Of a DNA stretch of 64,000 nt, positions 2,663 through 64,000 are shown piece after piece. The DNA is taken from contig NZ_JAKSYD010000114.1 in the NCBI RefSeq assembly GCF_022829605.1, forward strand, positions 310,001 through 374,000. Direction: 5' to 3'. Within the stretch, counting starts at the first letter, position 1, and every line of letters begins with the position of its first letter. The notes under the pieces are model-generated. The model did not search any database. It had not been told where the DNA came from and saw only the letters and a program-made list of their open reading frames with translations. A program made the position numbers and the translations under genes. This DNA is from Methylobacterium sp. E-065 (GTDB lineage Bacteria; Pseudomonadota; Alphaproteobacteria; Rhizobiales; Beijerinckiaceae).

Positions 2663-3868
2663 TCAAGCGCCCACCGGCCAGGACCAGAACGCATCGCCCT
2701 CGGCCTCCAGGTTGCGGTTGAGCACCATCTTGTGGACCTCGTCCGCCCCGTCCACCAGCCGCGCCTGCCGGGCGTAGCGGTAGATCCACTCCAGCGGCGT
2801 ATCGGTGGAATAGCCCCGGGCGCCGTTGATCTGGATCGCGACGTCGGCGGCGGCGTGGATCAGATTGGCCACGTGCACCTTGGCCATCGAGACTTCCTTG
2901 CGGGCGAAGCTCCCCTGGTCGAGCGCCCAAGCGGCCTTCATCACCAGCAGGCGGCCGATCTCGATCCGCATGGCAAGGTCTCCCAGCATCAGCTGGATGC
3001 TCTCGCGGTCGGCCAGCCGGATGCCGAAGCCGTGGCGCTCGCCCGCATAGGCCCGGGCGATCTCGACGCAGCGCTTCGACAGGCCGAGCCAGCGCATGCA
3101 ATGGGTCAGACGCGCCGGGCCGAGGCGGATCTGCGTCAGCTTCAGGCCGTCGCCCTCGTTCATCAGGACGTTCTCGGCCGGGATCTCGAGCCCGTCGAAC
3201 TGAAGCTCGCAATGCCCGCCATGCTCCTCCGGCCCCATGATCGGGATGCGCCGCAGGATCTCCCAGCCGGGCTGGTCCCGGTGGAACAGGAAGGCGGTCA
3301 GGCCTTTTCGCGCGTCGTCGGAGGTGCGGGCCATCAGGATGAAGTGGGCAGCCTCCTCGGCACCGGTGATGTACCATTTACGACCGGTGACCACGTAGGT
3401 GTCGCCGCGCCGCTCGGCCCGGGTCTGGATCATGCCGGGATCGGAGCCGCCGCCAGGGTGGGGCTCGGTCATGGCGAAGGCCGAGCGTACGTCGCCCGCC
3501 ACGATCGGTGCCAGCCAGCGCGCTTTCTGCTCCGGGGTGGCGACCTTCTCCAGCACCATCATGTTGCCATCGTCCGGCGCCGCCGAATTGAACACGACCG
3601 GACCGAAGATCGAGCGGTTCATCGCCTCGTAGCAGACCGCCATGCCGACCTTGTCGAGGCCGGCGCCCCCGGTCTCCGGCTTCAGCTGAAGGCACCAGAG
3701 CCCCTGCTCCCGCGCCAGACCGCGCAGCCGGGCGAGTTCCGATAGCGCGATGTTGCCGTGGCCGTCATAGGCGGACGGCTCGGATTCGAGCGGCAGGATA
3801 TGGGCATCCACGAAGGCCGCGATCCGCGCGCGGTATTCCTCCACGCGGGGCGAGATGGTGAAATCCAT
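2663..3868 (-). CDS. Acyl-CoA dehydrogenase
   Basis: This 401-residue FAD enzyme has the acyl-CoA dehydrogenase signatures FAMTEP (131-136) followed by GGGSDPG, and the C-terminal segment ending DGADEVHKM that closes the active site and contacts FAD. It oxidises an acyl-CoA to the 2-enoyl-CoA, passing electrons to ETF. The start [13 protein letters not shown] at 3868 matches the usual N-terminal helix; the longer reading frame upstream is Arg/Pro-rich shadow. It is first in the minus-strand cassette with thiolase, SDR and an APH-like kinase. Its long-acid, ACAD10/11-like character is suggested by this neighbourhood and by the family's 400-residue form, not by any single residue. Confidence 0.92.
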
Positions 3869-4031
3869 GGGTCGCGGCCTCTGGCGAATGCCTGTGCGCG
3901 GTCTTGAAGAGCGCCTGCCACTCGGCCTGGCACCCTCGGCTGTTCTCTCTACGATCTGGACTTGTCCAGGCAACCGCGAGGTGAGACGAAGTACGGTAGC
4001 TGTTCGGCGCCCTACAGCCGAGAGTGACAGG

Positions 4032-5981: not shown

Positions 5982-6031
5982 TGCCGGCGACGATAGACCC
6001 TCGCCGGCCTCGATCCAATCGGCGGCGTCGC

Positions 6032-6479: not shown

Positions 6480-7466
6480 TTACAACGGCCGTCGCACCAC
6501 GCGGGCGATCAGACCCACGATCCCCTCCCGGAACAGCAGCACGCACAGCACGAAGACGCAGCCCTGAATGATCGTCACCCAGGCGCCGAACTGGGCGAGG
6601 TAGGTCTCCATGGTGACGATCACCAAAGCGCCGACGATCGGCCCGAACACGGTGCCCATGCCGCCGACCAGGGTCATCAGCACCACCTCGCCCGACATCG
6701 ACCAGTGGACGTCGGTGAGCGAGGCGAGCTGGAACACGATTGCCTTGGTGGAGCCAGCGAGCCCTGCCAGCGTCGCCGAGAGCACGAACACCGCAAGCTT
6801 GTACTGGCTCGCCCGGTAGCCCAGCGAGATCGCCCGGGGCTCGTTGTCGCGGATCGCCTTCAACACCTGCCCGAACGGCGAATGGATGATGCGGTAGATC
6901 AGCAGCATCCCGGCCATGAAGATCACGCAGACGAGGCCGTACATCGCCCGGTCGTCCGCGAGGCTGATCACGCCGAACAGATTGCCGCGGGGCACCGCCT
7001 GGATACCGTCCTCGCCGCCGGTGAACTTCGCCTGCAGGGAGAAGAAGAACGCCATCTGGGCGAGCGCGAGCGTGATCATCGAGAAGTAGATGCCCTGGCG
7101 ACGAATCGCCAACGCGCCGAAGACGAGCCCGAACAGGGCCGCCGTGGCGGTTCCGCTGAGGATCGCGAGTTCGGGCGTGAAGCCGAGCTGCTTGGCCGTG
7201 TAGGCGCACAGGTAGCTCGCCATGCCGAAATAGGCGGCGTGTCCGAAGGAGAGCAGGCCGCCGTAGCCAAGCAGCAGGTTGAAGGCGAGCGCGAACAGCG
7301 CGAAGCACAGCACCTTCATCAGGTAGACGGGGTAGAGCACCAGCGGCGCCACGATCAGCAGCACGGCGATGCCGATGAAGATCAGGCGGTGAAGCGCCTT
7401 GTCGTCCCGGGTCGTCGGCAAGGCTGCGGCGATCGGGGCGGCGTCGATGGCGGCGGTGTCGGCCAT
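6480..7466 (-). CDS. livM: Branched-chain amino-acid type ABC transporter permease (LivM)
   Basis: This 328-residue polytopic inner-membrane protein has about ten hydrophobic segments, with the LivM family pattern FGHAAYFGMASYL near residue 75 and the cytoplasmic EAA-like loop NEPRAISLGY. It forms the heterodimeric channel with LivH. It lies 22 nt downstream of livH and is the last gene of the livG-livF-binding protein-livH-livM series. The family transports branched-chain amino acids, but many HAAT-family systems carry urea, amides or aromatic acids, so the substrate is left open. Confidence 0.92.
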   Translation of the reverse strand: MADTAAIDAAPIAAALPTTRDDKALHRLIFIGIAVLLIVAPLVLYPVYLMKVLCFALFALAFNLLLGYGGLLSFGHAAYFGMASYLCAYTAKQLGFTPELAILSGTATAALFGLVFGALAIRRQGIYFSMITLALAQMAFFFSLQAKFTGGEDGIQAVPRGNLFGVISLADDRAMYGLVCVIFMAGMLLIYRIIHSPFGQVLKAIRDNEPRAISLGYRASQYKLAVFVLSATLAGLAGSTKAIVFQLASLTDVHWSMSGEVVLMTLVGGMGTVFGPIVGALVIVTMETYLAQFGAWVTIIQGCVFVLCVLLFREGIVGLIARVVRRPL

Positions 7467-7488
7467 GGGTGTCGAGCCTCTTCGCGGG

Positions 7489-8376
7489 TCAGGCCGTGCG
7501 CCCGAACAGGCCGGCGGGTTTGACGAGCAGCACCAGCACCATGATCACGAAGATCACGGTGGCCGACGCCTCCGGGTAGAACACCTTGGTCAGCCCCTCA
7601 ACGAGGCCGAGGGCGAAGCCCGTGATCACCGAACCGATGATCGAGCCCATGCCGCCGATCACCACCACGGCGAACACCACGATGATGATGTCGGCGCCCA
7701 TGTTGGGGTTCACCGAGTAGATCGGCGCGGCGAGCACGCCCGCGAAGCCCGCCAGCGCGACGCCGAACCCGTAGGTCAGCGTCAGGAACAGCGGCACGTT
7801 CACGCCGAAGGCCTGGACCAGGGTCGGGTTCTCGGTGGCGGCGCGTAGATAGGCGCCGAGCTTCGTCTTCTCGATCACGAGCCAGGTGGCGATGCAGACG
7901 GTGAGCGACGCCACGACCACCCAGGCCCGGTAGTTCGGCAGGAACATGAACGGCAGGCGCTGGCCGCCCGACAGCTCGGGCGGGATCGCGTAGGGCAGGC
8001 CCGAGACGCCGTACTGGTTGCGGAACAGGCCCTGGATGATCAGCGCCAGCCCGAAGGTCAGGAGCAGGCCGTAGAGGTGGTCGAGCTTGTAGAGCCGGGC
8101 GATCAGCAGCCGCTCCAGCACGATCCCGAAGGCGCCGACCACGAGCGGTGCCAGCCCCAGCGCCCACCAATAGCCGAGCCCGACATAGGTGAGCAGCATC
8201 CAGGCCACGAACGCGCCCATCATGTAGAGCGCGCCGTGGGCGAAGTTGATGATGTTCAGAAGCCCGAAGATGATCGCGAGCCCGAGCGACAGGATCGCGT
8301 AGAACGAGCCGTTGATCAGGCCGAGCAGCAACTGCCCGAACAGGGCCTGCATCGGCACACCGAAGATCGTTGTCAT
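7489..8376 (-). CDS. livH: Branched-chain amino-acid type ABC transporter permease (LivH)
   Basis: This 295-residue hydrophobic protein has the LivH signature at its N-terminus: GLINGSFYAILSLGLAIIFG, followed by NFAHGALYMMGAF. The C-terminal region GGMGSIIGSVITGFALG is also typical. It pairs with LivM to form the transmembrane pore of a HAAT-family importer. The ATG at 8376 follows the substrate-binding-protein stop by 28 nt. The tight gene spacing (22 nt to livM) implies co-transcription. Confidence 0.93.
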   Translation of the reverse strand: MTTIFGVPMQALFGQLLLGLINGSFYAILSLGLAIIFGLLNIINFAHGALYMMGAFVAWMLLTYVGLGYWWALGLAPLVVGAFGIVLERLLIARLYKLDHLYGLLLTFGLALIIQGLFRNQYGVSGLPYAIPPELSGGQRLPFMFLPNYRAWVVVASLTVCIATWLVIEKTKLGAYLRAATENPTLVQAFGVNVPLFLTLTYGFGVALAGFAGVLAAPIYSVNPNMGADIIIVVFAVVVIGGMGSIIGSVITGFALGLVEGLTKVFYPEASATVIFVIMVLVLLVKPAGLFGRTA

Positions 8377-48381: not shown

Positions 48382-49446
48382 TCAGGGGTGGGCCAGCACC
48401 CGGTAGGTGCCAGCGGGGTCGTCGGCGCCGGTCGCCACCGCATCCTTCAGATCGGCGACGATCCGCGCCGCCACCGGCAAGCGGTAATGCAGCGCGTCCC
48501 AGTAATTCGCGTCCTGGCTGGTGAGCGGCGACGGGAAACGGAAATCCACCACCGTGGCGCCGTGGCCGGCGCCGATCGCGGCGACCTGGCGCTTGCAAGC
48601 CGCCTCGCGCCGACCCGCCGCCGTCCCGGGCGCGCCCTGTGCGGCGGCGTGGACCGGCATGAAGACGAGGAGCTTGACCGCATCGGCGGCCACGCGGTCC
48701 AGGAGATGATCGAGGCGGCCGAGCGCCGGCATGGGCGCATCGACTGGATCGACAATGGCACTCGGATCGGCAGCACCCGCGCGGATATGGGCGCGCGCGC
48801 GCTCCGGATCGTAGCGATCCTCCGGCGGTGTGAAGACGGCGTAACCGTCCTGCCGGATCCGCGGACGGGCCAAATCGGTACGCGCGAGCCCGACCTGCGC
48901 CGCCACGGTGACCGCACGCAGGTTCACCTGGCGCAGCACGCCCCACGGCGTGCCCTCCGCATAGAGCCAGTCCGGGAAGGCGTTGGCCGTACGGGCGGGG
49001 GGATCGGCCGAACACCACGTCCCATCGAGCCCGAACAGGACCGCACGCACCGCATGGTGCGCGATGAAAAGTTCGGCGAGGCGGATCTGCTCGTCCGGCG
49101 TCGCGGCGTTCACGGCAAGATTCGCGAATTGGGCGCCGAAGGCTTCGTCGAGGGCGTTCGGATCGAGCAGGCGGGACGTCGAGGTGCCGAAGACCGCGGC
49201 GTCGAACCGGCCGCCGCGGGCGATCTGCGGGTATGAGAGCCGCTGGTTGGTGTCCATGATCGGACCCGGCGGATGCCCGGGCGCTGCGCGCAGGCCGTAG
49301 GGATCCATCGCAGCGACGAAAACCAGCGCCGCCGCGCCGACCAGGATCGTGCCGGCAAGGAAGTCCCGCGTGAACGCCATCCAGGCGACAGGCGCTGGAC
49401 TGGGACAGTCGGGCGCTGAGGGTGTCGAGGCCATGGCAGCGAACAT
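48382..49446 (-). CDS. Hypothetical membrane-anchored SGNH-like protein, 354 residues
   Basis: There is one N-terminal helix (FTRDFLAGTILVGAAALVFVAAM, about residues 25-47), then a long periplasmic region. The pieces FGTSTSRLLDP near residue 85 and NYWDALHYRLP near the C-terminus resemble block I (Ser) and the terminal Asp-x-x-His of AlgX/DltD-like SGNH hydrolases. The first ATG is at 49446; the next, MASTPSAP (49434), is also plausible. These enzymes often act on surface polysaccharide O-acetyl groups. Assignment to the superfamily is by motif only. It is convergent with tgt (7 nt apart). Confidence 0.7.
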   Translation of the reverse strand: MFAAMASTPSAPDCPSPAPVAWMAFTRDFLAGTILVGAAALVFVAAMDPYGLRAAPGHPPGPIMDTNQRLSYPQIARGGRFDAAVFGTSTSRLLDPNALDEAFGAQFANLAVNAATPDEQIRLAELFIAHHAVRAVLFGLDGTWCSADPPARTANAFPDWLYAEGTPWGVLRQVNLRAVTVAAQVGLARTDLARPRIRQDGYAVFTPPEDRYDPERARAHIRAGAADPSAIVDPVDAPMPALGRLDHLLDRVAADAVKLLVFMPVHAAAQGAPGTAAGRREAACKRQVAAIGAGHGATVVDFRFPSPLTSQDANYWDALHYRLPVAARIVADLKDAVATGADDPAGTYRVLAHP

Positions 49447-50745: not shown

Positions 50746-50795
50746 TGGTCGGAGTGGCAGGATTTGAACCTGCGACCCCCACGTCCCGAACGGGG
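50746..50795 (-). repeat. tRNA-Pro(CGG) 3' fragment, likely att site
   Basis: On the minus strand this reads as anticodon loop TTCGGGA (anticodon CGG), 3' anticodon stem, variable loop, T-arm with loop TTCAAAT, acceptor strand CACTCCG, discriminator A and encoded CCA (50746-50748). The 5' half (acceptor CGGAGTG and D-arm) is absent. The first anticodon-stem strand CCCCG already has a mismatch to CGTGG, marking where identity ends. It is not a functional gene. Confidence 0.85.
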
Positions 50796-53246: not shown

Positions 53247-53486
53247 TCAGACCTCCTCGCGCGGCAGGAAGCCGTGGCTCTGCAGGACGACCTGGATCCC
53301 GCCGGCGAGCTGCCTGTCGTTGAGGCCGTCAGCGCGCCCGCGGGCGAGGACCTCCCCGACCAGCGACGAGGTCGTGGGCCGAGCCGGCTCGGGCGCGCTC
53401 GGTGTTGGGTTGCCCCAGCCGATGATGCGGCCGATCTCCATGCCCGCCAGCACGGACAGCAGTAGCCAGATCCCGAGCCAGATCAT
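53247..53486 (-). CDS. Small membrane protein, 79 residues (island)
   Basis: Starts MIWLGIWLLLSVLAGMEIGRIIGWG, so the N-terminus is a membrane helix or uncleaved signal, then a Pro/Ser/Thr linker and a soluble tail with DGLNDRQLAGGIQVVLQSHGFL. ATG at 53486 overlaps the stop of the upstream gene by 4 nt (ATGA). The longer frame to 53855 is shadow. Unknown family. Confidence 0.65.
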   Translation of the reverse strand: MIWLGIWLLLSVLAGMEIGRIIGWGNPTPSAPEPARPTTSSLVGEVLARGRADGLNDRQLAGGIQVVLQSHGFLPREEV

Positions 53487-54125: not shown

Positions 54126-55703
54126 ATGTCCGACGACCACCAGCGCCGCGCCCGGCGCCTCGCCAGAATTGCGACCTACGCGGAATCGGAGGACCGCCAC
54201 CGGAAGGCGATCACGCTCCCGCCGGGAGAAATCCCCACTATCGAGCAGCTGCTGGCCGGTGCCGCACTGGCCGGGGGCAGCGTCGCCGTCGACGCGACGC
54301 GGTGGGCCGGGCGGCTGCTCGGATCCCCAGAGGGCGGCCGTCTTGCCGAGGACGTGCGGGCAGCCCTCGATCGACTGCTCTCGGACGTGTCGCCCAACTC
54401 GTGCGAGGACGCCGAGATCCACGCGCTCGGGGCGATCCGGCGGTTCGAGCCCGACATCACGATCGAGGACCTCTACGGGGACATTGCCGATCGCTGCGCG
54501 GTGTACGGCGCCCTGCTCGGCTGCCAGGACGCCGCCGGCCGGGCCGTCGCGATCGCGCACGATGCCATCGGCTCGTACCTCCACGTCGCCGGCGGGGATC
54601 CCGTGCCGCTGCGCGAGGTCGTCGTCTCGCTGCTCGCGTTCGCAGGGCTCTGCCGCCGGGACATGCCGTCGGATGCCGCGGACCCGGCGCTGGTGGCGTC
54701 GTGGCCGGTCGTGCGCGGCAATGCCCGTGCCCTGATGGGCACGATCGCCCAGGTCGCGCAGCCGCCGGAGGAACTGCCGGTGGGGACCGGTCGGGCCGTG
54801 CCGGCGGGGCGGATCGACGAGCCAGCGGACGTCGCGGCGCTGGCCGGCGCGGTCGCGCCCGGCCTTGTCGTTATCCCGGCGCCGCCGGCAGGCAAGAAGG
54901 TCCCCGGGCAGGCCGGCACGCTCGTCGGCCGCCGGCTGCCGCTGCGCCCGCTCCCGGATCTGGAGGCCCTAGGCCGGGAACTGACGGCCCGACGGCCTTG
55001 GGCGGCTCCGGCGATCGCAAGGATCGTCGGCCTGCTTCTTGGTCGGTCCCACACGGCGATCCCCAACATCGTGCTGGTCGGCCCGCCCGGTACCGGCAAG
55101 AGCGAGCTGGCCAGGGACCTCGCCACCGCGCTCGGCGTGCCGTCCCTCGTCTACGCCTGTGCCGGCGCACATGACGGTTCGATCGGCGGGACGTCGAAGC
55201 AGTGGAGCAGCGCGCGGCCGGCCGTTTGGACGCAGATCTGCATTGAGAACGAGACCGCCAGCGGAATGCTCATCCTCGACGAGCTCGACAAGGCGGCCGG
55301 GCCCGGCGGCCAAAATGGATCCGTCCGGGAAGCCCTCCTCGGGATCGCGGAGCCGAGCCAACGCCGAGATTTCTGGGACGTCGGGCTGGAGACGCGATGT
55401 GATCTGAGCGGGATCTCACTCGTCGCGACCGCGAACTCGACGGAGCCTCTCCGCGGCCCGCTCCTCGACCGGTTCGTGACGATCCCCGTCGGCGCCCCCC
55501 GCCGGGAGGACCTGCCGGTGATCGTGCAGTCCGTCCTGCAAGGGCTCCGGGCCGAGCATGCGGATCCGCGGTGGATCCAGGATCTCGACGGGACCGAATA
55601 CGAAGCCCTCCGCAAGGCATGGCGGGGCGGCTCGCTGCGACCCGTCAAGCGGGCGGTCGAACACATCGTCGGGCTCCGGTCCAGCAACCGTTTCGCGCAC
55701 TGA
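54126..55703 (+). CDS. AAA+ family ATPase (island)
   Basis: This 525-residue protein has an unknown N-terminal region (1-300, helical, with an Ala/Gly/Pro-rich linker about 230-265) and a C-terminal AAA+ domain. Walker A is GPPGTGKS at 319-326, Walker B is MLILDELDK with Asp385 and Glu386, and SLVATANSTEPL is the sensor 1 region, followed by arginine-finger and sensor 2 candidates. The ring pore loop is not obvious. It resembles the ATPase domain of Lon or MoxR-type chaperones rather than a packaging terminase or helicase. An alternative GTG start lies at 54114. First gene of a six-gene coupled operon. Confidence 0.9.
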   Translation: MSDDHQRRARRLARIATYAESEDRHRKAITLPPGEIPTIEQLLAGAALAGGSVAVDATRWAGRLLGSPEGGRLAEDVRAALDRLLSDVSPNSCEDAEIHALGAIRRFEPDITIEDLYGDIADRCAVYGALLGCQDAAGRAVAIAHDAIGSYLHVAGGDPVPLREVVVSLLAFAGLCRRDMPSDAADPALVASWPVVRGNARALMGTIAQVAQPPEELPVGTGRAVPAGRIDEPADVAALAGAVAPGLVVIPAPPAGKKVPGQAGTLVGRRLPLRPLPDLEALGRELTARRPWAAPAIARIVGLLLGRSHTAIPNIVLVGPPGTGKSELARDLATALGVPSLVYACAGAHDGSIGGTSKQWSSARPAVWTQICIENETASGMLILDELDKAAGPGGQNGSVREALLGIAEPSQRRDFWDVGLETRCDLSGISLVATANSTEPLRGPLLDRFVTIPVGAPRREDLPVIVQSVLQGLRAEHADPRWIQDLDGTEYEALRKAWRGGSLRPVKRAVEHIVGLRSSNRFAH

Positions 55704-55714
55704 GGGGGGGCGCC

Positions 55715-55954
55715 ATGTCCGTGTCAGCCCTCCGCTCCATGCGGGACGACATCGAGGCCGCGGTCCTCGACCAACGCGTCGAGCCGTCCCTCGCCGGCGG
55801 CGTCTACAGCTACATCGCCGCCCTCCTTCGGCTTGCCGAGGACGGCGATCGCGACCCCGATCTGGCCGCCGGAGAAGGCCGCGCGGCGGTCGGATTCCTG
55901 CGCGCCGTCCCCCGCCTCCCGCCCGCCCGCGCCCGCACATGGAGCCCGTCGTGA
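55715..55954 (+). CDS. Hypothetical protein, 79 residues (island)
   Basis: ATG at 55715 has a GGGGGG Shine-Dalgarno-like stretch and follows the ATPase stop by 11 nt. It is mostly one helix pair (SVSALRSMRDDIEAAVLDQRV, then GGVYSYIAALLRLAED) with a disordered Arg/Pro end. It may be an adaptor for the ATPase. No family known. Confidence 0.6.
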   Translation: MSVSALRSMRDDIEAAVLDQRVEPSLAGGVYSYIAALLRLAEDGDRDPDLAAGEGRAAVGFLRAVPRLPPARARTWSPS

Positions 55955-56634
55955 GCATTCGCAGCCGCCGCGCACACCGGGAGCTCCACGGGTATCTGGA
56001 GGGGCTTTACGGCCCGCAGCCCACCCTCATCATCAGGGAGATCCCGCACGAGGGCGCCGTGCGGATCTCGCTGACCGTGTCGGGCACGACGGCGATCCGG
56101 CCCGATCCGGAGGACGGCCAGACCTATTCGTCCGCCTCGATCGACCGGTATGCTCCGGAGTTCGTCTCCCTGGTCGAGCAGATCGCCGCCCGCCTCGTCG
56201 CGATCCGGTCGGAGCGGTACACGCCCGGGGGCGGGCTGGAGCCGCAGGATCAGAGCGACGCCGAGTACGACCTCCACGCCGACTACTACCACCTGATCCC
56301 CCTCGCGAGCCTGGAGATCGGCGTCCCATGGATTGAGGTCGTACGCGCGGTCGCGGAAGTCCTGCGCCGGGAAGATCTCCTGGACGGCGTGGTCTCATCT
56401 CAGATCAAGCAAAAGTTCGCGAGCCTAAGATGGTATTTCGACAGCAAGCCCAGGGATTTTCGGGATCAGATTAACGTCATCATCAGCGCTGCGGAGCATC
56501 TTTCTACTGTCGTCTGCGAGACCTGCGGCGCCCCGGGAAGGCATCGGCGCGGCGGCTGGCACGTGATCGCATGCGATCCCTGCGACGAGGCGCGAGGCCG
56601 CAAGAGGACGAAGCGGGTCGGTGGCGATGGCTGA
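55939..56634 (+). CDS. Hypothetical protein with C-terminal zinc-ribbon-like CxxC pairs, 231 residues (island)
   Basis: The ATG at 55939 overlaps the previous gene by 16 nt; an in-frame GTG at 55951 would give a 4-nt GTGA overlap instead. The main part (HRELHGYLEGLYGPQPTLIIRE and a later segment around VPWIEVVRAVAEVLRREDLLD) is mixed alpha/beta. The end has CETCGAPGRHRRGG followed by CDPC, four cysteines spaced for a zinc knuckle, then a basic tail RGRKRTKR suited to nucleic acid. A DNA- or RNA-binding partner of the ATPase is conceivable. Family unknown. Confidence 0.75.
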   Translation: MEPVVSIRSRRAHRELHGYLEGLYGPQPTLIIREIPHEGAVRISLTVSGTTAIRPDPEDGQTYSSASIDRYAPEFVSLVEQIAARLVAIRSERYTPGGGLEPQDQSDAEYDLHADYYHLIPLASLEIGVPWIEVVRAVAEVLRREDLLDGVVSSQIKQKFASLRWYFDSKPRDFRDQINVIISAAEHLSTVVCETCGAPGRHRRGGWHVIACDPCDEARGRKRTKRVGGDG

Positions 56635-56962
56635 TGTCTATCGGCACCGCGGCCGCCGGCTCTGGAGCGTGCGCGAGGGCGGCCGGGTCGTCGCGCACGT
56701 GCCGGCGATCGCGCTGCGCGACGTGGTCTTCCGGGCCTCGGAGGCGGCCCGGCTACGGTGCCTGCGGACCGGCGCCCGGGACGTCCATGCATGGGCGGCG
56801 GGCACCATCGTCAAGGCGCCCCGGCCGGCGGGTGCGATCCGGCTCCGGTACCGGGTCGCCGCGGAAGGTTTCAGGGCAGACGGGGCGGTCGTCATCAGCG
56901 CGGCCGCGGCCTGGTTCGAGGTGGATGGGACGGCTTGGGTCGAGGGATGGAGGGTGCGGTGA
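56627..56962 (+). CDS. Hypothetical protein, 111 residues (island)
   Basis: Overlaps the previous gene by 8 nt. It starts MADVYRHRGRRLWSVREGGR, with many Arg and Val residues, a likely beta-barrel fold with WFEVDGTAWVEGWRV at the end. No known motif. Its stop overlaps the start of the metallophosphoesterase gene by 4 nt (GTGA), supporting coupled expression. Confidence 0.65.
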   Translation: MADVYRHRGRRLWSVREGGRVVAHVPAIALRDVVFRASEAARLRCLRTGARDVHAWAAGTIVKAPRPAGAIRLRYRVAAEGFRADGAVVISAAAAWFEVDGTAWVEGWRVR

Positions 56963-57792
56963 CGAGTGTGTGGGTGCTGTCCGATCTCCACGTCGACGCG
57001 TCCGCCTGGACGCCGCCGCCGGGACCGCGCGTCGACCTCGCCATCGTCGCCGGCGACATCGCCGACGGGCTCTGCAGGCGGTCGATTCCTTGGCTCGCCG
57101 AACACGTCGTGCCCCGGGCGCGGCAAACGATCGACGTCGCCGGCAACCACGACTATTACGGCACCCGCATCCCCGATGAGATCGAGGCTGCACGGGCTGC
57201 CGCGGCCGCGGCCGGGATCACGCTGCTCGACGGCGGTCAGACGACGCACGTCGACCGCGTCCGCATTTGCGGAGCGACACTGTGGACGGACTACGCGCTC
57301 GGCGAGCCGAGGTGGCCCCGGGCATGGGCGCTGCGGGACTGCGGCGATCGCGAGCGGGGGATGAGAGACCACAACAGAATCCAAACGCGCGACAGGCTCG
57401 GGTCCCCGGCGCCCTTCAGGACGCTGGCCGCGCTGGAACTGCACAACGACCACCGTGCCCGGATCGAGCGCGTCCTCGCCGAGCCGCACGCGGGCCCGAC
57501 GATCGTCGTCACGCATCATGCCCCGCACCCGCGCAGCCTGTCGTGGGAAGGCCCCGTCGAGCCGACATGCGCGGCGTACGCCAGCGACCTGTCGGCGATC
57601 ATGGAAGGCCCGACGGCGCCGGCGCTCTGGATCCACGGGCACGTCCACGTGAGCCGGGACTACCGCCACGGCGGCACGCGGGTGCTGGCCAATCCGCGTG
57701 GCCACGACATGAGCTACGTCCGCCGGGACGGCACCCCGGTCGACGGCCGTGAGAACCCGCGGTTCGATCCTTCCCTCATCCTGGAGATCTGA
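56959..57792 (+). CDS. Metallophosphoesterase (calcineurin-like, GTG start; island)
   Basis: This 277-residue enzyme has the complete metallophosphoesterase set: Asp9 and His11 in LSDLHVD, Asp33 in AGDIAD, Asn63-His64 in GNHDYYG, and then HH in VVTHHAPHP and the final GHVHVS. It probably hydrolyses a phosphodiester such as cyclic nucleotide, nucleic-acid end or nucleotide derivative. GTG at 56959 is fixed by the 4-nt overlap. It follows the 111-residue gene and precedes a secreted protein by 2 nt in the AAA ATPase operon, an association I have not seen named. Confidence 0.92.
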   Translation: MTSVWVLSDLHVDASAWTPPPGPRVDLAIVAGDIADGLCRRSIPWLAEHVVPRARQTIDVAGNHDYYGTRIPDEIEAARAAAAAAGITLLDGGQTTHVDRVRICGATLWTDYALGEPRWPRAWALRDCGDRERGMRDHNRIQTRDRLGSPAPFRTLAALELHNDHRARIERVLAEPHAGPTIVVTHHAPHPRSLSWEGPVEPTCAAYASDLSAIMEGPTAPALWIHGHVHVSRDYRHGGTRVLANPRGHDMSYVRRDGTPVDGRENPRFDPSLILEI

Positions 57793-57794
57793 CG

Positions 57795-58136
57795 ATGCGC
57801 ACCCTCAATCTCGCGGCGGCCCTGGCCGTCCTCGCCGCGCCGGCCGCCGCGGAGGACACGACGTGGATGCTGCCCCCGGCCGGCCTGTACTGCCCGGTCG
57901 GGGCGGACGTCCTCCCCATCAGCATCCGCGAAGGCGGGCGCATGGGCATCGACGCGCTCGACTGCGCGGCCGTGAGGCTGGAGGGCGGCCGGGTGTGGTC
58001 GACGGCCTGCTACGCCAACGGGGGATCCACGGTGTCCTACGACACCGACTTTGAGGTCACGCCCTCCGGCGCACTGATGCATGACGGCGTCCGATTCCAG
58101 CGCCGCGTCGGGCCTGCCCCCTGCCCGGCGGGCTAG
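57795..58136 (+). CDS. Secreted hypothetical protein, 113 residues (island)
   Basis: A clear signal peptide MRTLNLAAALAVLAAPAAAED with cleavage near residue 19-20 is followed by a 90-residue mature part with three or four cysteines (GLYCPVG, ALDCAAV, TACYANG, PAPCPAG), which could form disulfides. It is the last gene of the ATPase operon. It overlaps by 80 nt the far end of the opposing HTH-like gene. No family recognised. Confidence 0.7.
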   Translation: MRTLNLAAALAVLAAPAAAEDTTWMLPPAGLYCPVGADVLPISIREGGRMGIDALDCAAVRLEGGRVWSTACYANGGSTVSYDTDFEVTPSGALMHDGVRFQRRVGPAPCPAG

Positions 58137-58656
58137 CCCCTCCCGGCCCGGGGCGCGGCCATGACAGCCTAGAGCGGGCTCTGATCTCGGCTGGATCCCG
58201 CTTGGGCTTGACCGGCTCGTCGAGGCGGTCGCCGACCAGGCGCACGATGTCCTCGGCGCGCTTCCGGGCGATCCAGCGGAGGTGCGCGACGTCGCCGGGG
58301 CTGACCTGCGCCTCGCCGGATTTCCACCGCCGCACGGTCCGCCCGTCCCCATGGCCGAGATCTCGCACGACGTCTGTCGTCCAGCGCGACCCGTAGAGCA
58401 GCTCGGCGATCGCGGAGAGCTTCTGGAGTGGCGTCAGGTCGGCTGGCGCGCCATTGCCGCCGGTGCCGGCCAGCGCGACGGCGAGGGGCGCGCCCTCGGC
58501 CTCGGCGCGGCCCTTGGCGATGCGGCGATCCCGCTCGGCGGCACGCCTGGTGGCGCCATCGGCGGGCCGGTCATTGGCACTGAAAGCCCTTTGAGTTTCA
58601 TTTCCGTACGCTGCGATTTTGGGGGCGGGATCCGACCCGCCCCCGCGACGGTTCAG
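58057..58656 (-). CDS. Helix-turn-helix-like hypothetical protein, apparent CTG start (island)
   Basis: This frame is open and well composed, with no in-frame ATG, GTG or TTG before the conserved part. The only plausible start is CTG at 58656, which overlaps the stop of the KilAC-domain gene by 4 nt (CTGA), like the ATGA/GTGA joins elsewhere here. The core LTPLQKLSAIAELLYGSRWTT, then a GDGRTVRRWKSGEAQVSPGD stretch, resembles an HTH or YdaS-like DNA-binding domain with conserved TVRRW. The C-terminus is Arg-rich and overlaps the secreted-protein gene by 80 nt, which may be excessive: an earlier stop or frameshift is possible. Confidence 0.45.
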   Translation of the reverse strand: MNRRGGGSDPAPKIAAYGNETQRAFSANDRPADGATRRAAERDRRIAKGRAEAEGAPLAVALAGTGGNGAPADLTPLQKLSAIAELLYGSRWTTDVVRDLGHGDGRTVRRWKSGEAQVSPGDVAHLRWIARKRAEDIVRLVGDRLDEPVKPKRDPAEIRARSRLSWPRPGPGGASPPGRGQARRGAGIGRRHASVRRRA

Positions 58657-59078
58657 GCCTTCCTCGGGCCGTTGAGGGGCAGCTTGCCCTGCGCCAACAG
58701 GTTCTCGATCACCCGCTGCCCCTTGGCGGTGATCATGACCTGCCTCGCCTCGACGACCCTCACGCCGTTGTCGACAATATCGGTGTCGTGCTCGACGTAG
58801 CCAAGCTTCAGGCCTCGGTACCCTCCGACCCAGGGGCCCTTCCGCACCTTCATCTCGCGGGAGGTGCGCTGGAAGATCCAATCCCAGCGGTCGAGCATTG
58901 CGAACAGGCGCCGCTGAGGGACCCCGATGTCCTTGGCGTAGAGGCTGATCAGCTTCGGTTCCTTCGCCGCCGAGAGGATATCGTACGCGACCGCCCTGGG
59001 CTGCAGAACCTCGACGCGCTGGCGGTTCTCGGCGAGCTCAGCCGCCGTCGCCTCGGCGCGGTGCGTGACGACGGTCAG
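58653..59078 (-). CDS. KilAC-domain phage antirepressor-like protein, apparent CTG start (island)
   Basis: The end of this frame is a KilAC domain: ISLYAKDIGVPQRRLFAMLDR, followed by a lysine/glycine-rich strand region (WVGGYRGLKLGYVEHDT) and TAKGQRVIENLL, as in the C-terminal domain of phage antirepressors. The frame is open back to 59189 but has no ATG, GTG or TTG upstream of the domain. CTG at 59078 gives MTVVTHRAEATAAELAEN, a reasonable helical beginning, and a 141-residue protein. An ATG at 58898 would cut the domain in half. There may be a true CTG start, a frameshift from an ATG-led frame at 59182, or an N-terminal truncation of the Ant/Bro domain. It is coupled to the HTH-like gene. 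Confidence 0.6.
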   Translation of the reverse strand: MTVVTHRAEATAAELAENRQRVEVLQPRAVAYDILSAAKEPKLISLYAKDIGVPQRRLFAMLDRWDWIFQRTSREMKVRKGPWVGGYRGLKLGYVEHDTDIVDNGVRVVEARQVMITAKGQRVIENLLAQGKLPLNGPRKA

Positions 59079-59201: not shown

Positions 59202-61307
59202 CTAGGCAGCCACAAGCGCCAGACGATGCCGGGCACTGCCCCAACCGCCGGATGCCTCAAGGTAGAGCTCGACCTCCCGGGCGCGGTCGGCAGTGGCGTC
59301 TAGGGGTGCCATCGGAGCCCGCTGGACAGCCGCAGGGCGACCCTGGGACGGACGGCGCCGATCAGTGCGGGGCACCGACCGGGCAGGCTTGGCCGCGGTC
59401 CTGGCGAGGTCCTCGAAGGCCGTGGCGGCGAGGGCGGCGTCGGCGGGAGAGACGGCGGCCGGATCAGTCAGCAGGGTGGTCTCGACGTGGTTGACGCCCC
59501 GGCCCCAGACGCCCTCGACCTGGAGCCATTCCCACGTTCCGGAGGCGGTCTGGACCGTGGCGTAAACCCTCGTGAACCGGTTGACCCGGACGGCGCCGGG
59601 GCGCGGCAGGGCAGGGTCCGAGGCGGAGCGGGCGTCTCGCGAGGCAGAGCCCACAATATAGCGTGACGCAAACCCGACAGGCTCTGCCTCGACGGATCCC
59701 AGGTCTGGGGCGTCAGCCAGGTCCTCGGATACCGTCTGCGCGTATCGAGAGGCGACGTCGGCGACGGCGGCGACGGCGGCGACGGCGGCAGCGCGGGCCG
59801 CCTGGAGCGTCTCGACGTCGATCGCGCCATCCAGCCCGTACTCGTCCGCGGCGATGCGCATGGCCGCCAGGACCGCGTCCTTGCCAATCTCCTGGTCGGC
59901 GCAGATCTCGGCGAGGCTCATGCCGTCGGTGCGCTGTCCAAGGGCGTACAGGCCGATCCAGAGCCGGCGGTCGGCGGAATCGGACGCGCTCTCGATCCCG
60001 AGGCGGCGACGGCGGGCCTGCTGACGCTCGGCCGGGGTCAGGGCCTTGCCGCCGCCGGGGAACAGGGAGCGGAGGCCGAAAGCCTCGGCCTGCTCTACCT
60101 GGATGTCCAGGAGGTCAACGATCGTCTCGGCCTTGTGGTTGTAGAGGGCGCTCTGCTCGACGCCCTTGTGCTCGTCGGTCTCACCAGCCTCGTGGCGGCG
60201 CTGGCGCCTGTCGAGGGACCCGAGGGCGGAGCGCGCCTCCTTCTCGGACAGTCCGGCCAAGGGCGCGAGCTCGGAGGCCCAGTCCTCGCGCGTGCCGCCC
60301 CGGACGTGGGCGGTGGCGTTGGCGGTCAGGAACAGCCAGAGCTCGCGCCGTCCCTTGGGCGGGCCACCCATGCCGTCGCGCCACGCGTGCAGGTCGCGCA
60401 AGATCCGGACCCACCGACCCGCGGGGCCGGCATGGCGGCGAGGCTTGGCCACGGTCGGGTTGTCGTCGGCGGCGGAATTCGCCTCGGTGCGGGCCAGCCG
60501 GCGGTCCTGGAGGGCGCGGCGCGCGGTCGGCAGGATCGCGTCGGCCAGCGCATGGAAGGTGTGGCGCGTGGCGTCCGCAAATGCGGCGGGGTGGATCAGC
60601 CGCGCCACGGCGCCGGTCTCGGCGTGGACCGCGCCGACGAGGCGCAGGACGCGGGCGCCGTCCCGGCATTTACGGTCCAGGCCGGCGTCGCGGAACAGGC
60701 GCCACACCGGGAGCATGCGGGTCTCGAACGCCTGCATCTCCGCCTCGGCCTGCGGGTCGGCGTGCGCGCGCCGCTTGGCCTTGGGCGTGCCGTTCGTGGC
60801 CAAGTCCGGCCCGTGCAGGGCATCGTAGACCGCGCGCACGCGCTCCCATGCGGACGCCTTGGCGCCGTCGCATGCGTACTGAGCCTGGAGGTTGCGGCCC
60901 GAGGCGACCCAGATCGAGGGCAGCGGGAGTCCGGCGGCGTCCATCGCCTCGACGAGGACGTCGCGCACGGCCTCGGGCGCCCAGCCGTCGAAGGGCAGCC
61001 CAGGCTTGTTGTAGTCGTAGTCGAGGCCGAGGTTGCCCACCGACTTCAGGCATTCGCCGGAGCGTCGGCGACCCCAGAACCGGTTGAGGCTGACGTACTG
61101 GGCATCGACCAGCGCGGGGCTCGTCAGAAGCTCGGCCAGATCGACGGTCGCGCCCACGAAGTTTTCGTCGCCGTCGGCATCGATCACCTTGCGGCCGATC
61201 CAGCCGCGGCCGACGGACCCCTTGGAGTGCAGCCACGCGAAATGCTCGGCGCTCTGATACGCACGGGTTGCCTGGCACGGGATGGACGGGAGGGGTGAGG
61301 CGGGCAT
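59202..61307 (-). CDS. Primase-like replication protein, 701 residues (island)
   Basis: The N-terminal third has LGLDYDYN with Asp96 and Asp98 and IWVASGRNLQAQY (134-146). This pattern (acidic pair, then S-G-R followed by hydrophobics) resembles archaeo-eukaryotic-primase-like Rep proteins of plasmids and satellites, although the match is by eye. The middle is helical, with a likely HTH-type segment GMSLAEICADQEIGKDAVLAAM (about 470-490). After it comes a low-complexity Ala/Val run encoded by a 9-bp tandem repeat, and a variable tail. It likely starts replication of the element. ATG at 61307 gives MPASPLPSIPCQ; the beginning ahead of residue 20 is weakly defined. Confidence 0.7.
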   Translation of the reverse strand: MPASPLPSIPCQATRAYQSAEHFAWLHSKGSVGRGWIGRKVIDADGDENFVGATVDLAELLTSPALVDAQYVSLNRFWGRRRSGECLKSVGNLGLDYDYNKPGLPFDGWAPEAVRDVLVEAMDAAGLPLPSIWVASGRNLQAQYACDGAKASAWERVRAVYDALHGPDLATNGTPKAKRRAHADPQAEAEMQAFETRMLPVWRLFRDAGLDRKCRDGARVLRLVGAVHAETGAVARLIHPAAFADATRHTFHALADAILPTARRALQDRRLARTEANSAADDNPTVAKPRRHAGPAGRWVRILRDLHAWRDGMGGPPKGRRELWLFLTANATAHVRGGTREDWASELAPLAGLSEKEARSALGSLDRRQRRHEAGETDEHKGVEQSALYNHKAETIVDLLDIQVEQAEAFGLRSLFPGGGKALTPAERQQARRRRLGIESASDSADRRLWIGLYALGQRTDGMSLAEICADQEIGKDAVLAAMRIAADEYGLDGAIDVETLQAARAAAVAAVAAVADVASRYAQTVSEDLADAPDLGSVEAEPVGFASRYIVGSASRDARSASDPALPRPGAVRVNRFTRVYATVQTASGTWEWLQVEGVWGRGVNHVETTLLTDPAAVSPADAALAATAFEDLARTAAKPARSVPRTDRRRPSQGRPAAVQRAPMAPLDATADRAREVELYLEASGGWGSARHRLALVAA
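59752..59787. repeat. 9-bp tandem repeat inside the primase-like gene
   Basis: Four copies of a GCGACGGCG unit (the first with one substitution) run from 59752 to 59787. In the gene they encode a run of Ala-Val-Ala repeats in a linker. Length changes by slippage would stay in frame, so the tract may be variable between isolates. Confidence 0.8.
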
Positions 61308-61709: not shown

Positions 61710-63668
61710 TCAAGCCGCACAATCGACTTCGCCGGATACTTTCATGGCCGCTGCGAGGCATGCCTCGACGGCTTGCCGAAGCGAGGACACGTAGACGTCG
61801 GCTCCGACTTGGCGACCAATGGAGGCGTCGGTCAACACCTTCTCGCCTTCCGGCCATAGACCGACCAGCAGCTGCACGGCGGGCGCCTTCTTCCGGATGC
61901 GTTCGAGGAGGTAGCGCAGGTGCGCCGGGTTGCCGGTGATGTCGAGGTAGGAGACGCAGACCATCGCTACGCCCATGAGATCGAGGTCGCGGATGCGCTC
62001 TCGCGAGACCTCGCCGTGCGGGACGACCCGGGCGCCGAGGCCGTGCTTGCGGAGCAACTGCGCCAGCATTGCCGAGGAGGCTTCGTCCAGGGGACCGCGG
62101 CCGGCCACGCACAGCACCGGGGCATCGCCGCTCCACGCTGCGGGAAGCGCGTCGCGGGATGGGGCCTGCCCAGGCACGGCCTCGTTCTTCGGGTGGGCGC
62201 GCTCGGCCAGGGTTGGCGTCGCGTTCGGGTTGACAGCCTTGTCGTCGCCCGCCGGCTCGACGTCCTCGTGATCCTCGAAGTCCTCGACCAGGGACCGGGC
62301 CGAAGCGCGGATGTTCTCCAGCTGGGCCGGGGTGACGACGCCACGGGCGTAGTCGTTGGCCGCGAGCTGCAATCCCTTGAGCGCCACCTCGTCGTAGTAC
62401 GACGACAGGGAGCGCTCCTTCAGCATGGTCTCGCCGAGGTCGCGGGCCTCGTCCGGGTCGCCCGCCAGCATGCGTTGATAGAAGTTCTCGACCGGGGTCA
62501 GGGGCGGCCGGTCGCCCAGCATGATGTCCAGGAACTCCAGGCTGTCGACGTGGCGGCCGAGCACGACCAGGCAGACCGTGAACGGGGTCGCCAGGATCAG
62601 TCCGATGGGACCCCACAGGAAGCCCCAGAACAGGGTCGAGACGATGACCGCGAAAGGCGAGAGGCCGGTCGAGTGTCCGTAGAGCAGGGGCTCGACCACC
62701 TGACCGAACAGGGGCTCGGCCACGAGGAACAGCGCGGCCGCGGCGATGACCATCGACCAACCTGGATCGACGGCGGCGGCCAGCGCCACCGGGAAGATCC
62801 CGGAGATGAAGGCGCCGATGTAAGGGACGAACCGCATCAGGGCCGAGAACACGCCCCACAAGAGGGGATTGGGCACCCCTATGAGCCAGAGGCCGACGCC
62901 GACGATGACCCCGAAGGTGGCGTTCATTCCGAGCTGGGCCAGGAAGTAAGTACCGAGCCGGCTTGCGGCGTCGTCCATTGCGACCGTGGTGCGATGGAGA
63001 TCGCTCGACCCGAACAGGCGGATCATTCGGTTGCGCAGGTCCTCGCGCTGCAGGAGCAGGAACACGACCACGACGAGCACGATGCCGACCGTGGTCAGCG
63101 GCTCGAAGATCGGGCCCAGCACCTTCTCGGCCAAGGCCAGGGGCGAGACCTCGGGCTCCTGGACGCGCACGAGCTGCGCCTTCGGGGTATCGCCGGCCGG
63201 TCCGGTCGCCGCGGACGTGCCAGCGGCGTCTGTCTTCTGCGTGGCGTCGTGGACTTGGTGGCTGAACTTCTGGATGACCCTATTGGCCTCGCCCAGCCAG
63301 CCCTGCTGCAGCCCGGCGAACTTCTTCTGCACGGTGGCCTGGTACTGCGGCAGGTTGCCGGCGAGACCTGCGACCTGCGTTCCGATGATCGCGCCGAAGC
63401 CTCCGATGACGGCCAGCGCCAGGAGGACGGCGACGATGACGGAGGGGACCCGTCCGAGCCTGATCCGCCGCAGGAGGTTGACGACCGGTCCCAGCACGAA
63501 GCTCAGCGGGACGGCCAGGACGAGGGGGATGAACACCTCGCGGCCGAAGTAAAGGGCGGCCACCAGCACGACGCCGACCGCGAGGGTGAGCAGCCCGCGC
63601 ACGCCGGGTACGAGCGGGGGCGGCACCTGGGCGGGCGGACGGGGAACGGTGGCTTCGTCGGTCGGCAT
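61710..63668 (-). CDS. AI-2E family transporter with C-terminal soluble extension
   Basis: This 652-residue protein has an AI-2E (PerM/UPF0118) membrane core of about 370 residues with seven or eight helices, including the conserved SALMRFVPYIGAFISGIFP. An unusually long C-terminal half follows, with a helical segment (residues 400-470), a charged linker and a Rossmann-like end: VLCVAGRGPLDEASSAMLA, then VAMVCVSYLDITGNPAHLRYL. That end resembles the B12-binding/receiver-like sensing domains in kinases. Family members export or exchange metabolites or Na+. MPTDEATVPRPP is the start. It may be chromosomal rather than part of the island. It is divergent from the PAS gene. Confidence 0.85.
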   Translation of the reverse strand: MPTDEATVPRPPAQVPPPLVPGVRGLLTLAVGVVLVAALYFGREVFIPLVLAVPLSFVLGPVVNLLRRIRLGRVPSVIVAVLLALAVIGGFGAIIGTQVAGLAGNLPQYQATVQKKFAGLQQGWLGEANRVIQKFSHQVHDATQKTDAAGTSAATGPAGDTPKAQLVRVQEPEVSPLALAEKVLGPIFEPLTTVGIVLVVVVFLLLQREDLRNRMIRLFGSSDLHRTTVAMDDAASRLGTYFLAQLGMNATFGVIVGVGLWLIGVPNPLLWGVFSALMRFVPYIGAFISGIFPVALAAAVDPGWSMVIAAAALFLVAEPLFGQVVEPLLYGHSTGLSPFAVIVSTLFWGFLWGPIGLILATPFTVCLVVLGRHVDSLEFLDIMLGDRPPLTPVENFYQRMLAGDPDEARDLGETMLKERSLSSYYDEVALKGLQLAANDYARGVVTPAQLENIRASARSLVEDFEDHEDVEPAGDDKAVNPNATPTLAERAHPKNEAVPGQAPSRDALPAAWSGDAPVLCVAGRGPLDEASSAMLAQLLRKHGLGARVVPHGEVSRERIRDLDLMGVAMVCVSYLDITGNPAHLRYLLERIRKKAPAVQLLVGLWPEGEKVLTDASIGRQVGADVYVSSLRQAVEACLAAAMKVSGEVDCAA

Positions 63669-63836
63669 GCGGCGTGATCTCCTCGACGCTGCGCCGACGC
63701 ACGCGGCACGCTGGCTTCAACGCTCCCGCCGACGTTTCGCCCCATGTCCCATGTCCCGCGCCCAGCCCGGCTTCAGCTGCCGTCGCGACCTTCGTGCGCA
63801 TGCCAGCGTTGTCCGTCCAGGCAGCGGAGGCTCTCG

Positions 63837-64000
63837 ATGGCGGAGATGGATGGGCGGATGCAGCAGGTGGTGGCCGGCCTGAGCGAGGGCGTGATCCTGG
63901 TCGAGCCGGACCAGACTATTTCCTACGCCAACGAGGCCGCGCTCGCGATGCACGGCGTGGCGGCACTCGGCGATCTCGGCGAGACCGTGGCCGAGTACCG
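63837..64000 (+). CDS. PAS-domain protein, N-terminal part only
   Basis: The frame beginning ATG at 63837 reads MAEMDGRMQQVVAGLSEGVIL, then VEPDQTISYANEAALAMHG, a typical PAS-domain start as found in sensor kinases and in PAS/GGDEF proteins. It continues off the window, so the output domain is unknown. It lies divergent from the AI-2E transporter across 168 bp. Confidence 0.8.
   Translation, partial: MAEMDGRMQQVVAGLSEGVILVEPDQTISYANEAALAMHGVAALGDLGETVAEY

What the first reader, a model, noticed from the sequence alone, without database searches (positions are those of the whole stretch)
54126..58136. Six-gene coupled operon: AAA+ ATPase, zinc-knuckle protein, metallophosphoesterase and secreted protein
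Most joins are overlaps or gaps of a few nucleotides, so the six proteins are probably made together. A MoxR/Lon-like ATPase with a nucleic-acid-binding-looking partner and a phosphoesterase is the shape of a nucleotide- or nucleic-acid-directed system. The final secreted cysteine-rich protein is odd for a purely intracellular role. This is the strongest candidate for an undescribed functional unit.
Basis: inference. Interest (0 to 1): 0.6.

Follow-up and report, generated by a model that had tools for sequence, protein, structure and literature searches.

The report
Phage-borne Lon-type ATPase–phosphoesterase operon
A tightly packed six-gene operon inside a mobile, phage-derived DNA island of a Methylobacterium-like bacterium encodes a Lon-type protein-threading motor without its protease, a phosphoesterase and a small exported protein; related sets recur in phages, islands and plasmids, but what they do is still unknown.

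Summary
In detail: six open, coupled genes at 54126-58136 (joins +11, -16, -8, -4, +2 nt). It is not a host operon. It lies in an island inserted in tRNA-Pro(CGG): a 47-nt tRNA remnant at 50746, the intact tRNA and an integrase on contig C183, an empty site in three relatives. Gene 1 is a Lon-type AAA+ with a helical N-terminal domain and no protease. Gene 3 has a Zn-ligand pattern, gene 4 is an L5 gp82 relative, gene 5 has intact metallophosphoesterase (MPE) motifs, gene 6 looks exported with four invariant Cys. The order AAA > ~75 aa > [Zn] > [gp82-like] > [MPE] > small exported protein recurs, middle genes optional. MPE lies within 5 kb of the AAA in 15 of 34 Methylobacterium and 10 of 15 other Rhizobiales clusters; 397 kb of control flanks have none. 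Two phage records with the AAA hold terminase. AAA-MPE pairs also occur on plasmids. dN/dS is 0.18-0.60 in 18 of 19 comparisons. Best reading: an element-borne module for conflict with other elements or the host (exclusion or counter-defence), using a protein-threading ring and a phosphodiesterase. Function is inferred. I found no description of the pair.

The parts
50746..50792 (-). attachment-site remnant: the 3' end of a tRNA-Pro(CGG) gene, left edge of the inserted island
   Evidence: 47 of 47 nt identical to the intact tRNA-Pro on contig C183:7418-7464; no complete tRNA here; empty site in three relatives
53247..53486 (-). small divergently transcribed gene (79 aa) often found beside the operon in other elements
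   Evidence: tblastn match in 14 of the 40 other Methylobacterium loci L072-L111
53483..53782 (-). small divergently transcribed gene (99 aa)
   Evidence: tblastn match in 8 of the 40 loci L072-L111
54126..55703 (+). g1: Lon-type AAA+ ATPase, protease domain absent, helical N-terminal domain (residues 5-210)
   Evidence: TIGR00763 3e-19, far below that model's cut-off; PDB Lon chains 6e-38; model pLDDT 84, pTM 0.56; Lon chains Z 22.2, rmsd 3.3, 266 aligned; W360 aligns with the tyrosine of RTYVG in human LONP1
55715..55954 (+). g2: small protein (79 aa); a protein of 110 aa or less follows g1 in 42 of 67 rows, but the g2 profile itself matches in only 8 of 42 loci
   Evidence: no family
55939..56634 (+). 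g3: protein with C-terminal Zn-ligand pattern CxxC...Cxx[C/H]
   Evidence: C193, C196, C212 invariant and fourth ligand C or H in 20 sequences; no clear fold match
56627..56962 (+). g4: relative of mycobacteriophage L5 gp82
   Evidence: PF25735 1.3e-12, above cut-off; phrog_586 9.1e-13; 434 phage records at E 1e-3, 391 of them Mycobacterium phages, none covering 80% of the query
56959..57792 (+). g5: calcineurin-like metallophosphoesterase
   Evidence: PF00149 7.9e-8, above cut-off; phrog_1649 4.6e-35; metal-site motifs invariant in 17 sequences
57795..58136 (+). g6: small protein with a signal-peptide-like start (by reading, no dedicated predictor) and four invariant cysteines
   Evidence: C33, C57, C72, C110 invariant in 15 sequences
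58653..58898 (-). convergent gene with phage antirepressor (KilAC) similarity
   Evidence: phrog_63 1.2e-4; PF03374 below cut-off
59202..61307 (-). phage-type replication protein (701 aa)
   Evidence: phrog_9432 1.9e-5; profile matches in 8 of 42 loci, window included

Best explanation
The operon is an accessory module of phage-derived integrated elements (shown). Gene 1 very likely forms a Lon-type ring that threads and unfolds proteins but cannot degrade them (inferred from fold and motifs). Its helical N-terminal domain and the ~75 aa partner probably choose the substrate (inferred). The phosphoesterase hydrolyses a phosphodiester, either a nucleotide signal or nucleic acid (inferred from the intact motifs). 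The exported Cys protein acts in the periplasm (inferred). I take the purpose to be conflict between genetic elements or with the host: the resident element uses the module to exclude or disarm an incoming rival, or to blunt host defence while it establishes. The common AAA-MPE core does the intracellular step, and the swapped genes, including the exported protein, tune specificity. Sub-confidences: mobile-element module 0.95; protein-threading ring without protease 0.8; conflict function rather than replication or metabolism 0.5.
For: Island in tRNA-Pro with empty site in three relatives. Same order in other elements; a tRNA gene lies within about 10 kb in 15 of the 21 operon loci scanned. 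One element of 29.2 kb is bounded by tRNA-Val and a 40-nt repeat, with an integrase and a Rha/KilAC antirepressor. Five IMG/VR records hold g1; terminase was found in both of the two tested and portal in the one tested. MPE within 5 kb of g1, either strand: 15 of 34 Methylobacterium and 10 of 15 other clusters; 0 hits in 397 kb of Methylobacterium control flanks. Pairs on plasmids of Microvirga, Bradyrhizobium, Polaromonas and Sphaerotilus, where a lytic cycle is not expected, so a resident-element function is more natural than virion production. The pore-loop aromatic and the invariant G322, G324, K325, D385, E386, N437, R449 and R505 fit an active Lon-type ATPase (roles of the residues partly recalled). 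Variable exported last gene. dN/dS below 1. Precedent: a phage metallophosphoesterase used early in infection against host defence (PMC12287305).
Against: No activity or phenotype is known. PADLOC gives generic P-loop matches for g1 and one candidate family (PDC-S10) for g5. MPE is not obligatory: it is missing from 21 of 42 Methylobacterium loci and 7 of 18 other Rhizobiales loci, and only 4 of 14 annotated plasmid regions show one nearby, in an incomplete gene table. In L079 and L081 the MPE is on the opposite strand. The control flanks come from Methylobacterium only. The precedent phosphoesterase (gp48) was not compared with g5, and the element's second MPE may be its closer relative. Relatives of g3 (weak), g4 and g5 in other phages, some of them large phages that I take to be virulent, fit an infection-stage role as well as an exclusion role.
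Confidence: 0.42

Rival explanations
1. Infection-stage takeover or replication module: g1 remodels a host or phage replication protein, as ClpX does for other phages (recalled), g5 processes nucleic acid, and g3 and g4 are early phage proteins; the operon serves lytic growth.
For: g4 relatives in 434 phage records, g5 relatives in 141 records including large phages, weak matches of the g3 C-terminal part in 12 records, 10 of them Lak phages; a replication protein lies beside the operon and lysis genes lie near it in 12 of 67 loci.
Against: In the window the operon is a separate unit convergent to the replication gene. AAA-MPE pairs sit on plasmids and on islands where no structural gene was found. 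An exported last protein is odd for replication.
Confidence: 0.27
2. Host-beneficial lysogenic conversion unrelated to phages: for example stress or protein-quality control, carried as island cargo beside metal-resistance genes.
For: Related islands carry what read as arsenic and copper genes (labels by my reading), and the window's island holds stress-type genes (by reading). A Lon-type AAA+ suits protein quality control.
Against: Related operons sit in phage records with terminase; composition varies and genes are swapped.
Confidence: 0.15
3. Co-located but functionally separate genes kept together by the position next to the attachment end of the element.
For: Middle genes are optional and exchangeable, and alleles of g4-g5 differ much more than g1 between near-identical elements.
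Against: Close or overlapping joins and constant order; AAA-MPE pairing recurs in other Rhizobiales and on betaproteobacterial plasmids.
Confidence: 0.13

Closest known systems
Lon protease (LonA, LONP1)
   Same: AAA+ module: sequence (PDB 6e-38), fold (Z 22.2), pore-loop aromatic position
   Different: no protease domain, no Lon N-terminal domain found, a different helical N-terminal domain
Phage metallophosphoesterases phrog_1649; CpdA-type nucleotide phosphodiesterases
   Same: metal-site motifs and full-length similarity to phrog_1649 (4.6e-35); weak match to CpdA (3.4e-6)
   Different: far below the CpdA model cut-off; here in an operon with the AAA+; substrate unknown
Mycobacteriophage A10ZJ24 gp48 (PMC12287305)
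   Same: a phage metallophosphoesterase; there shown to degrade DNA and to blunt host defence
   Different: no AAA+ partner mentioned in the parts read; sequence relation to g5 not tested; it may instead resemble the element's second MPE (phrog_547)
IetAS and other AAA+ defence systems
   Same: P-loop-region similarity of g1 to IetA (1.6e-5; also NF042959 2.4e-4)
   Different: residues 313-373 only; no subtilase partner in the operon
Mycobacteriophage L5 gp82 family (PF25735)
   Same: g4 is above the Pfam cut-off
   Different: function not learned: the one search gave two papers, seen as a listing only

Membership tests
Lon protease family | Lon-type AAA+ module | tested here: met
Lon protease family | C-terminal S16 protease domain | tested here: not met
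   g1 ends at residue 525 right after the AAA+ small domain; no protease family hit
Lon protease family | Lon N-terminal substrate domain | tested here: not met
   no Pfam hit for residues 1-300 at E up to 1; the model is helical there; its fold was barely tested
MoxR AAA+ | MoxR family match | tested here: inconclusive
   bpMoxR below its cut-off; AAA_5 above its cut-off but weaker than AAA; Lon is far the best in PDB
calcineurin-like metallophosphoesterase | metal-site motifs DxH, GD, GNHD, H, GHxH | tested here: met
   D9, H11, G32-D33, G62-D65, H186, H226-H228 invariant in 17 sequences, the last H at 230 in 90% or more
calcineurin-like metallophosphoesterase | phosphodiesterase or nuclease activity | not testable with these tools
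   needs a bench assay
IetAS defence system | AAA+ with subtilase partner | tested here: not met
   no subtilase among the six products
tRNA-integrated element | attachment repeat, integrase, empty site in relatives | tested here: met
   the two ends lie on different contigs, so that they belong to one island is inferred
complete prophage | terminase, portal and tail genes in the same element | tested here: inconclusive
   no match on the fetched parts of C133 and C183 to nine putative structural proteins of related phages; other structural families not tested; the middle of the island may be missing
phage satellite | depends on a helper phage | not testable with these tools
   absence of structural matches fits but does not show dependence

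The most novel reading that the evidence does not exclude
A new type of element-versus-element conflict system: a protease-less Lon-type threading ring coupled to a phosphodiesterase, with a swappable exported effector, carried by temperate phages, satellite-like islands and plasmids of alpha- and betaproteobacteria.
Probability: 0.35. Interest if true: 0.8.

Novelty: new variant of a known kind. Interest (0 to 1): 0.58.

Why it matters
Lon is one of the best studied AAA+ machines, and here its motor half has been taken over by mobile elements and is often paired with a phosphoesterase. If the pair is an exclusion or counter-defence system, it is a class that the defence library used here does not recognise as such, found across Rhizobiales elements and on plasmids. 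The wide set of natural variants makes partner specificity directly testable.

Tried and rejected
Host operon: rejected, because the locus is inside an inserted island. MoxR: not favoured. Known defence system: PADLOC gave generic P-loop matches for g1 and one candidate family, PDC-S10, for g5 (8.3e-7; 5.2e-11 for the C200 copy). Close relatives of g1 in named phages: only 9 records, each a partial Lon-like match under 60% identity. Fold of g3: best PDB Z 6.1, rmsd 4.2, 80 aligned, no clear match; five viral models at E below 0.001, four uncharacterised or unnamed and one labelled thymidine kinase. g6 against PDB: one match at E 0.063. Terminase_6N: none in the five virus records and none in the elements; 6 of 6 bacterial genomes searched have at least one match elsewhere. 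Literature on the pair: no paper, two that hold the three words (listing only), four for the Lon query (listing; passages of one), one for an anti-CBASS query (listing). A study of Hyphomicrobiales prophages does not use the word metallophosphoesterase in its main text (passages). Searches were seen as listings, apart from PMC11080155 and PMC12994072 (passages). Whether the stress-gene block from 61.7 kb on is island cargo is unresolved: relatives of these genes lie right of an element in genome G103, and the empty site puts the block inside the insertion unless the genome was rearranged.

Choices and dropped rows. The 40 Methylobacterium loci were picked by me from the list (20 near its top, 20 further down), not at random. 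Hits covering under 75% of a profile were left out; of those kept I aligned 27 of 30 (g1), 20 of 22 (g3), 24 of 30 (g4), 17 of 21 (g5) and 15 of 17 (g6). L172 and L173 are Methylobacterium and were left out of the 18 other-Rhizobiales loci; two of the 20 other-genus genomes with a strong match were not fetched. Of 20 loci read, 16 relatives have the tRNA-Pro and 3 of these show the window's left-flank gene within the roughly 1.3 kb held; 13 do not. In one search the broken g1 of L075 was not used. The signal-peptide count there comes from a crude rule (29 of 67 rows); by reading the N-termini I accept 26 of 67. That script also skipped g4 and took a longer start for g5 in the window row.
Full report
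Observation. The six genes are present, open and coupled at 54126-58136. The start of g5 is GTG at 56959, giving a 4-nt GTGA overlap with g4.

Where it lies. The window is G000:C133:310001-374000. At 50746-50792 there is the 3' end of a tRNA-Pro(CGG) gene but no complete tRNA. An intact tRNA-Pro(CGG) is on contig C183 at 7418-7494, near a phage-type integrase at 4882-6000 (phrog_1 2.5e-20; Pfam PF00589 below its cut-off) and a second metallophosphoesterase at 3512-4093 (phrog_547 2.6e-42). I searched 41 genomes for the gene next to that tRNA and examined the 20 loci returned. Of 16 relatives with the tRNA-Pro, three (L235, L236, L238) carry on its other side the gene that lies left of the island in the window (48382-49380); in the other 13 that gene is not within the short flank held. 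The three show the empty site, so the window's DNA right of 50748 is inserted. That C133 and C183 hold the two ends of one island is the simplest reading, not a proof.

Conservation of the set. g1 relatives were sought in 111 genomes of the genus; all 111 match at E 1e-3, but many of the weaker matches, in frames of over 800 aa, look like Lon itself. I fetched 12-20 kb around 40 of the matches, chosen by me. With the window and the second element of the same genome this makes 42 loci. Profiles find g2 in 8, g3 in 23, g4 in 29, g5 in 21 and g6 in 18 of the 42. Collapsing g1 at 80% identity gives 34 clusters: g2 5, g3 17, g4 22, g5 15, g6 12 (within 5 kb, either strand). g6 itself occurs in 28 of 110 genomes of the genus. 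As a control, 20 further stretches, 397 kb in all, from around 10 of these loci have no hit to any of the six. I scanned 21 of the operon loci for tRNA genes: 15 have one (Met, Gly, Val; one also Tyr) within about 10 kb.

Beyond the genus. Of 397 genomes of the order (three candidates scored per genome, so a lower bound), 20 genomes of other genera have a g1 match at E of 1e-59 or better; the weaker ones listed mostly lie in frames of Lon size. I fetched 18 such loci. MPE lies beside g1 in 11 of 18, 10 of 15 clusters, and in 4 of the 11 there are two MPEs in a row (L154, L156, L163, L165). g3 occurs in 2 of 18. Of 22 plasmid records with a g1-like ATPase I opened 15; one has no annotation, and 4 of the other 14 have an annotated metallophosphoesterase close by: Microvirga, Bradyrhizobium USDA 123, Polaromonas, Sphaerotilus (the plasmid gene table is incomplete). 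A scan of named genomes also found g1 relatives in Alsobacter, Pelomonas and Acidithiobacillus among others (49 loci; neighbourhoods not examined).

Kind of element. In genome G063 the element is bounded by tRNA-Val and an exact 40-nt repeat 29.2 kb away. It holds the operon (without g4), a Rha/KilAC antirepressor, a replication gene, a P-loop protein of 1131 aa, the second MPE and an integrase. Reading its genes I saw no structural ones. Nine putative structural proteins of related phages find two matches in 91 loci: a terminase (25% identity, 8.7e-20) in L129, about 13 kb from g1 of G059, and part of a portal (7e-8) in L109. There is none in the window's island, in C183, in C200 or in the G063 element. 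So a few of these loci may be fuller prophages. Phage lysozyme or Rz1-type genes lie near the operon in 12 of 67 loci, the two query loci included. Five IMG/VR records hold g1. In two I tested and found terminase large subunit (phrog_15 3.6e-78 and 3.5e-133), and in the first also portal (3.4e-39). So the module occurs in tailed phages and in elements where no capsid gene was found; that the phages are temperate is inferred from antirepressor and integrase genes.

Gene by gene. g1: best families are Lon (TIGR00763 3e-19; PDB Lon chains 6e-38). The model (mean pLDDT 84, pTM 0.56) has a helical domain at 5-210, a low-confidence linker at 212-242 and the AAA+ module; VIA-align gives Lon chains at Z 22.2, rmsd 3.3, 266 aligned. 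The chain ends after the AAA+ small domain, so the protease is absent. W360, invariant in 11 diverse members and nearly so in 27, aligns with the tyrosine of RTYVG in human LONP1. PMC12994072 names Y565 as the pore-loop residue that grips substrate (passages); I matched it to this tyrosine from memory of the motif. That supports a protein-threading ring. The helical domain was barely tested in the fold search. g2: 79 aa; a protein of 110 aa or less follows g1 in 42 of 67 rows, mostly without a g2 profile match. g3: C193, C196, C212 invariant with C or H as fourth ligand. g4: L5 gp82 family. g5: intact motifs. g6: signal-peptide-like start, four invariant Cys. In elements without g6 the last gene is often another small protein with a similar signal peptide (26 of 67 rows carry such a gene by my reading).

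Evolution. dN/dS is 0.18-0.60 in 18 of the 19 comparisons made and 0.77 for a nearly identical g1 pair; g3 and g5 tend to the lowest values (no significance test). Between two near-identical elements (L006, L082) g1 differs by dS 0.011 but g5 by 0.40 and g4 by 0.23, which suggests that g4-g5 alleles were exchanged. In two near-identical loci (L073, L074) g5 is absent and g4 and g6 form one frame.

Mechanism. Shown: mobile location, co-occurrence, Lon-type AAA+ without protease (sequence and predicted fold), intact phosphoesterase motifs, constrained evolution. Inferred: ring-shaped threading motor, adaptor role of the N-terminal domain and g2, phosphodiesterase activity, periplasmic action of g6, and a role in conflict between elements or with the host. 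For the conflict role speak the spread over phages, islands and plasmids, the swapping of genes, and the precedent of A10ZJ24 gp48, a phage metallophosphoesterase expressed early that degrades DNA and silences defence genes (PMC12287305: abstract, passages and sections 10 and 11 read). Against it speak the lack of a clear match to a known defence family, the optional nature of g5, and relatives of g3, g4 and g5 in other phages, which fit a takeover role.

Known or new. Parts are known families; the coupled pair of a protease-less Lon-type ATPase and a metallophosphoesterase was not found described in the searches made (subscription papers and preprints are not held). I rate it a new variant of a known kind, an element-borne accessory operon, with a fair chance of being a new conflict system.

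Noticed in passing
L012:3512-4093 (C183) and L114:13422-13982 (G063 element): A second, different metallophosphoesterase (phrog_547 type, tested for the C183 copy) sits next to the tyrosine integrase in both elements. Bxb1 gp47, of the mycobacteriophage MPE family, is a recombination directionality factor (PMC12287305, passage), so a role in excision is worth testing.
   Followed up: partly
window 61710-64000 and L005: A block of AI-2E transporter, PAS-kinase and stress-type genes (labels by reading) follows the element; relatives of the same genes follow an element in genome G103 too. Island cargo or neighbourhood is unresolved.
   Followed up: partly
L006 (C200:76000-95999): A second element with the same operon in this genome lies near tRNA-Gly and beside what read as ars genes; copies 97% and 93% identical over 12 kb sit near tRNA-Gly in L082 and tRNA-Met in L084.
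   Followed up: partly
L075 (G062:C1): The closest relative of the window's operon has a broken g1 and a split g3, while g4, g5 and g6 are open: a decaying copy.
   Followed up: no
L073:8795-9481 and L074:7134-7820: g4 and the exported g6 form one open frame where g5 is missing.
   Followed up: no
L114:1841-5236: A 1131-aa P-loop protein with weak nSTAND1 similarity (5e-4, below cut-off) in the G063 element, possibly a defence gene.
   Followed up: no
L163 (G186:C3): An AAA-MPE-MPE module in another Rhizobiales family lies about 4 kb from what read as arsenic-type resistance genes, as in Methylobacterium islands.
   Followed up: no
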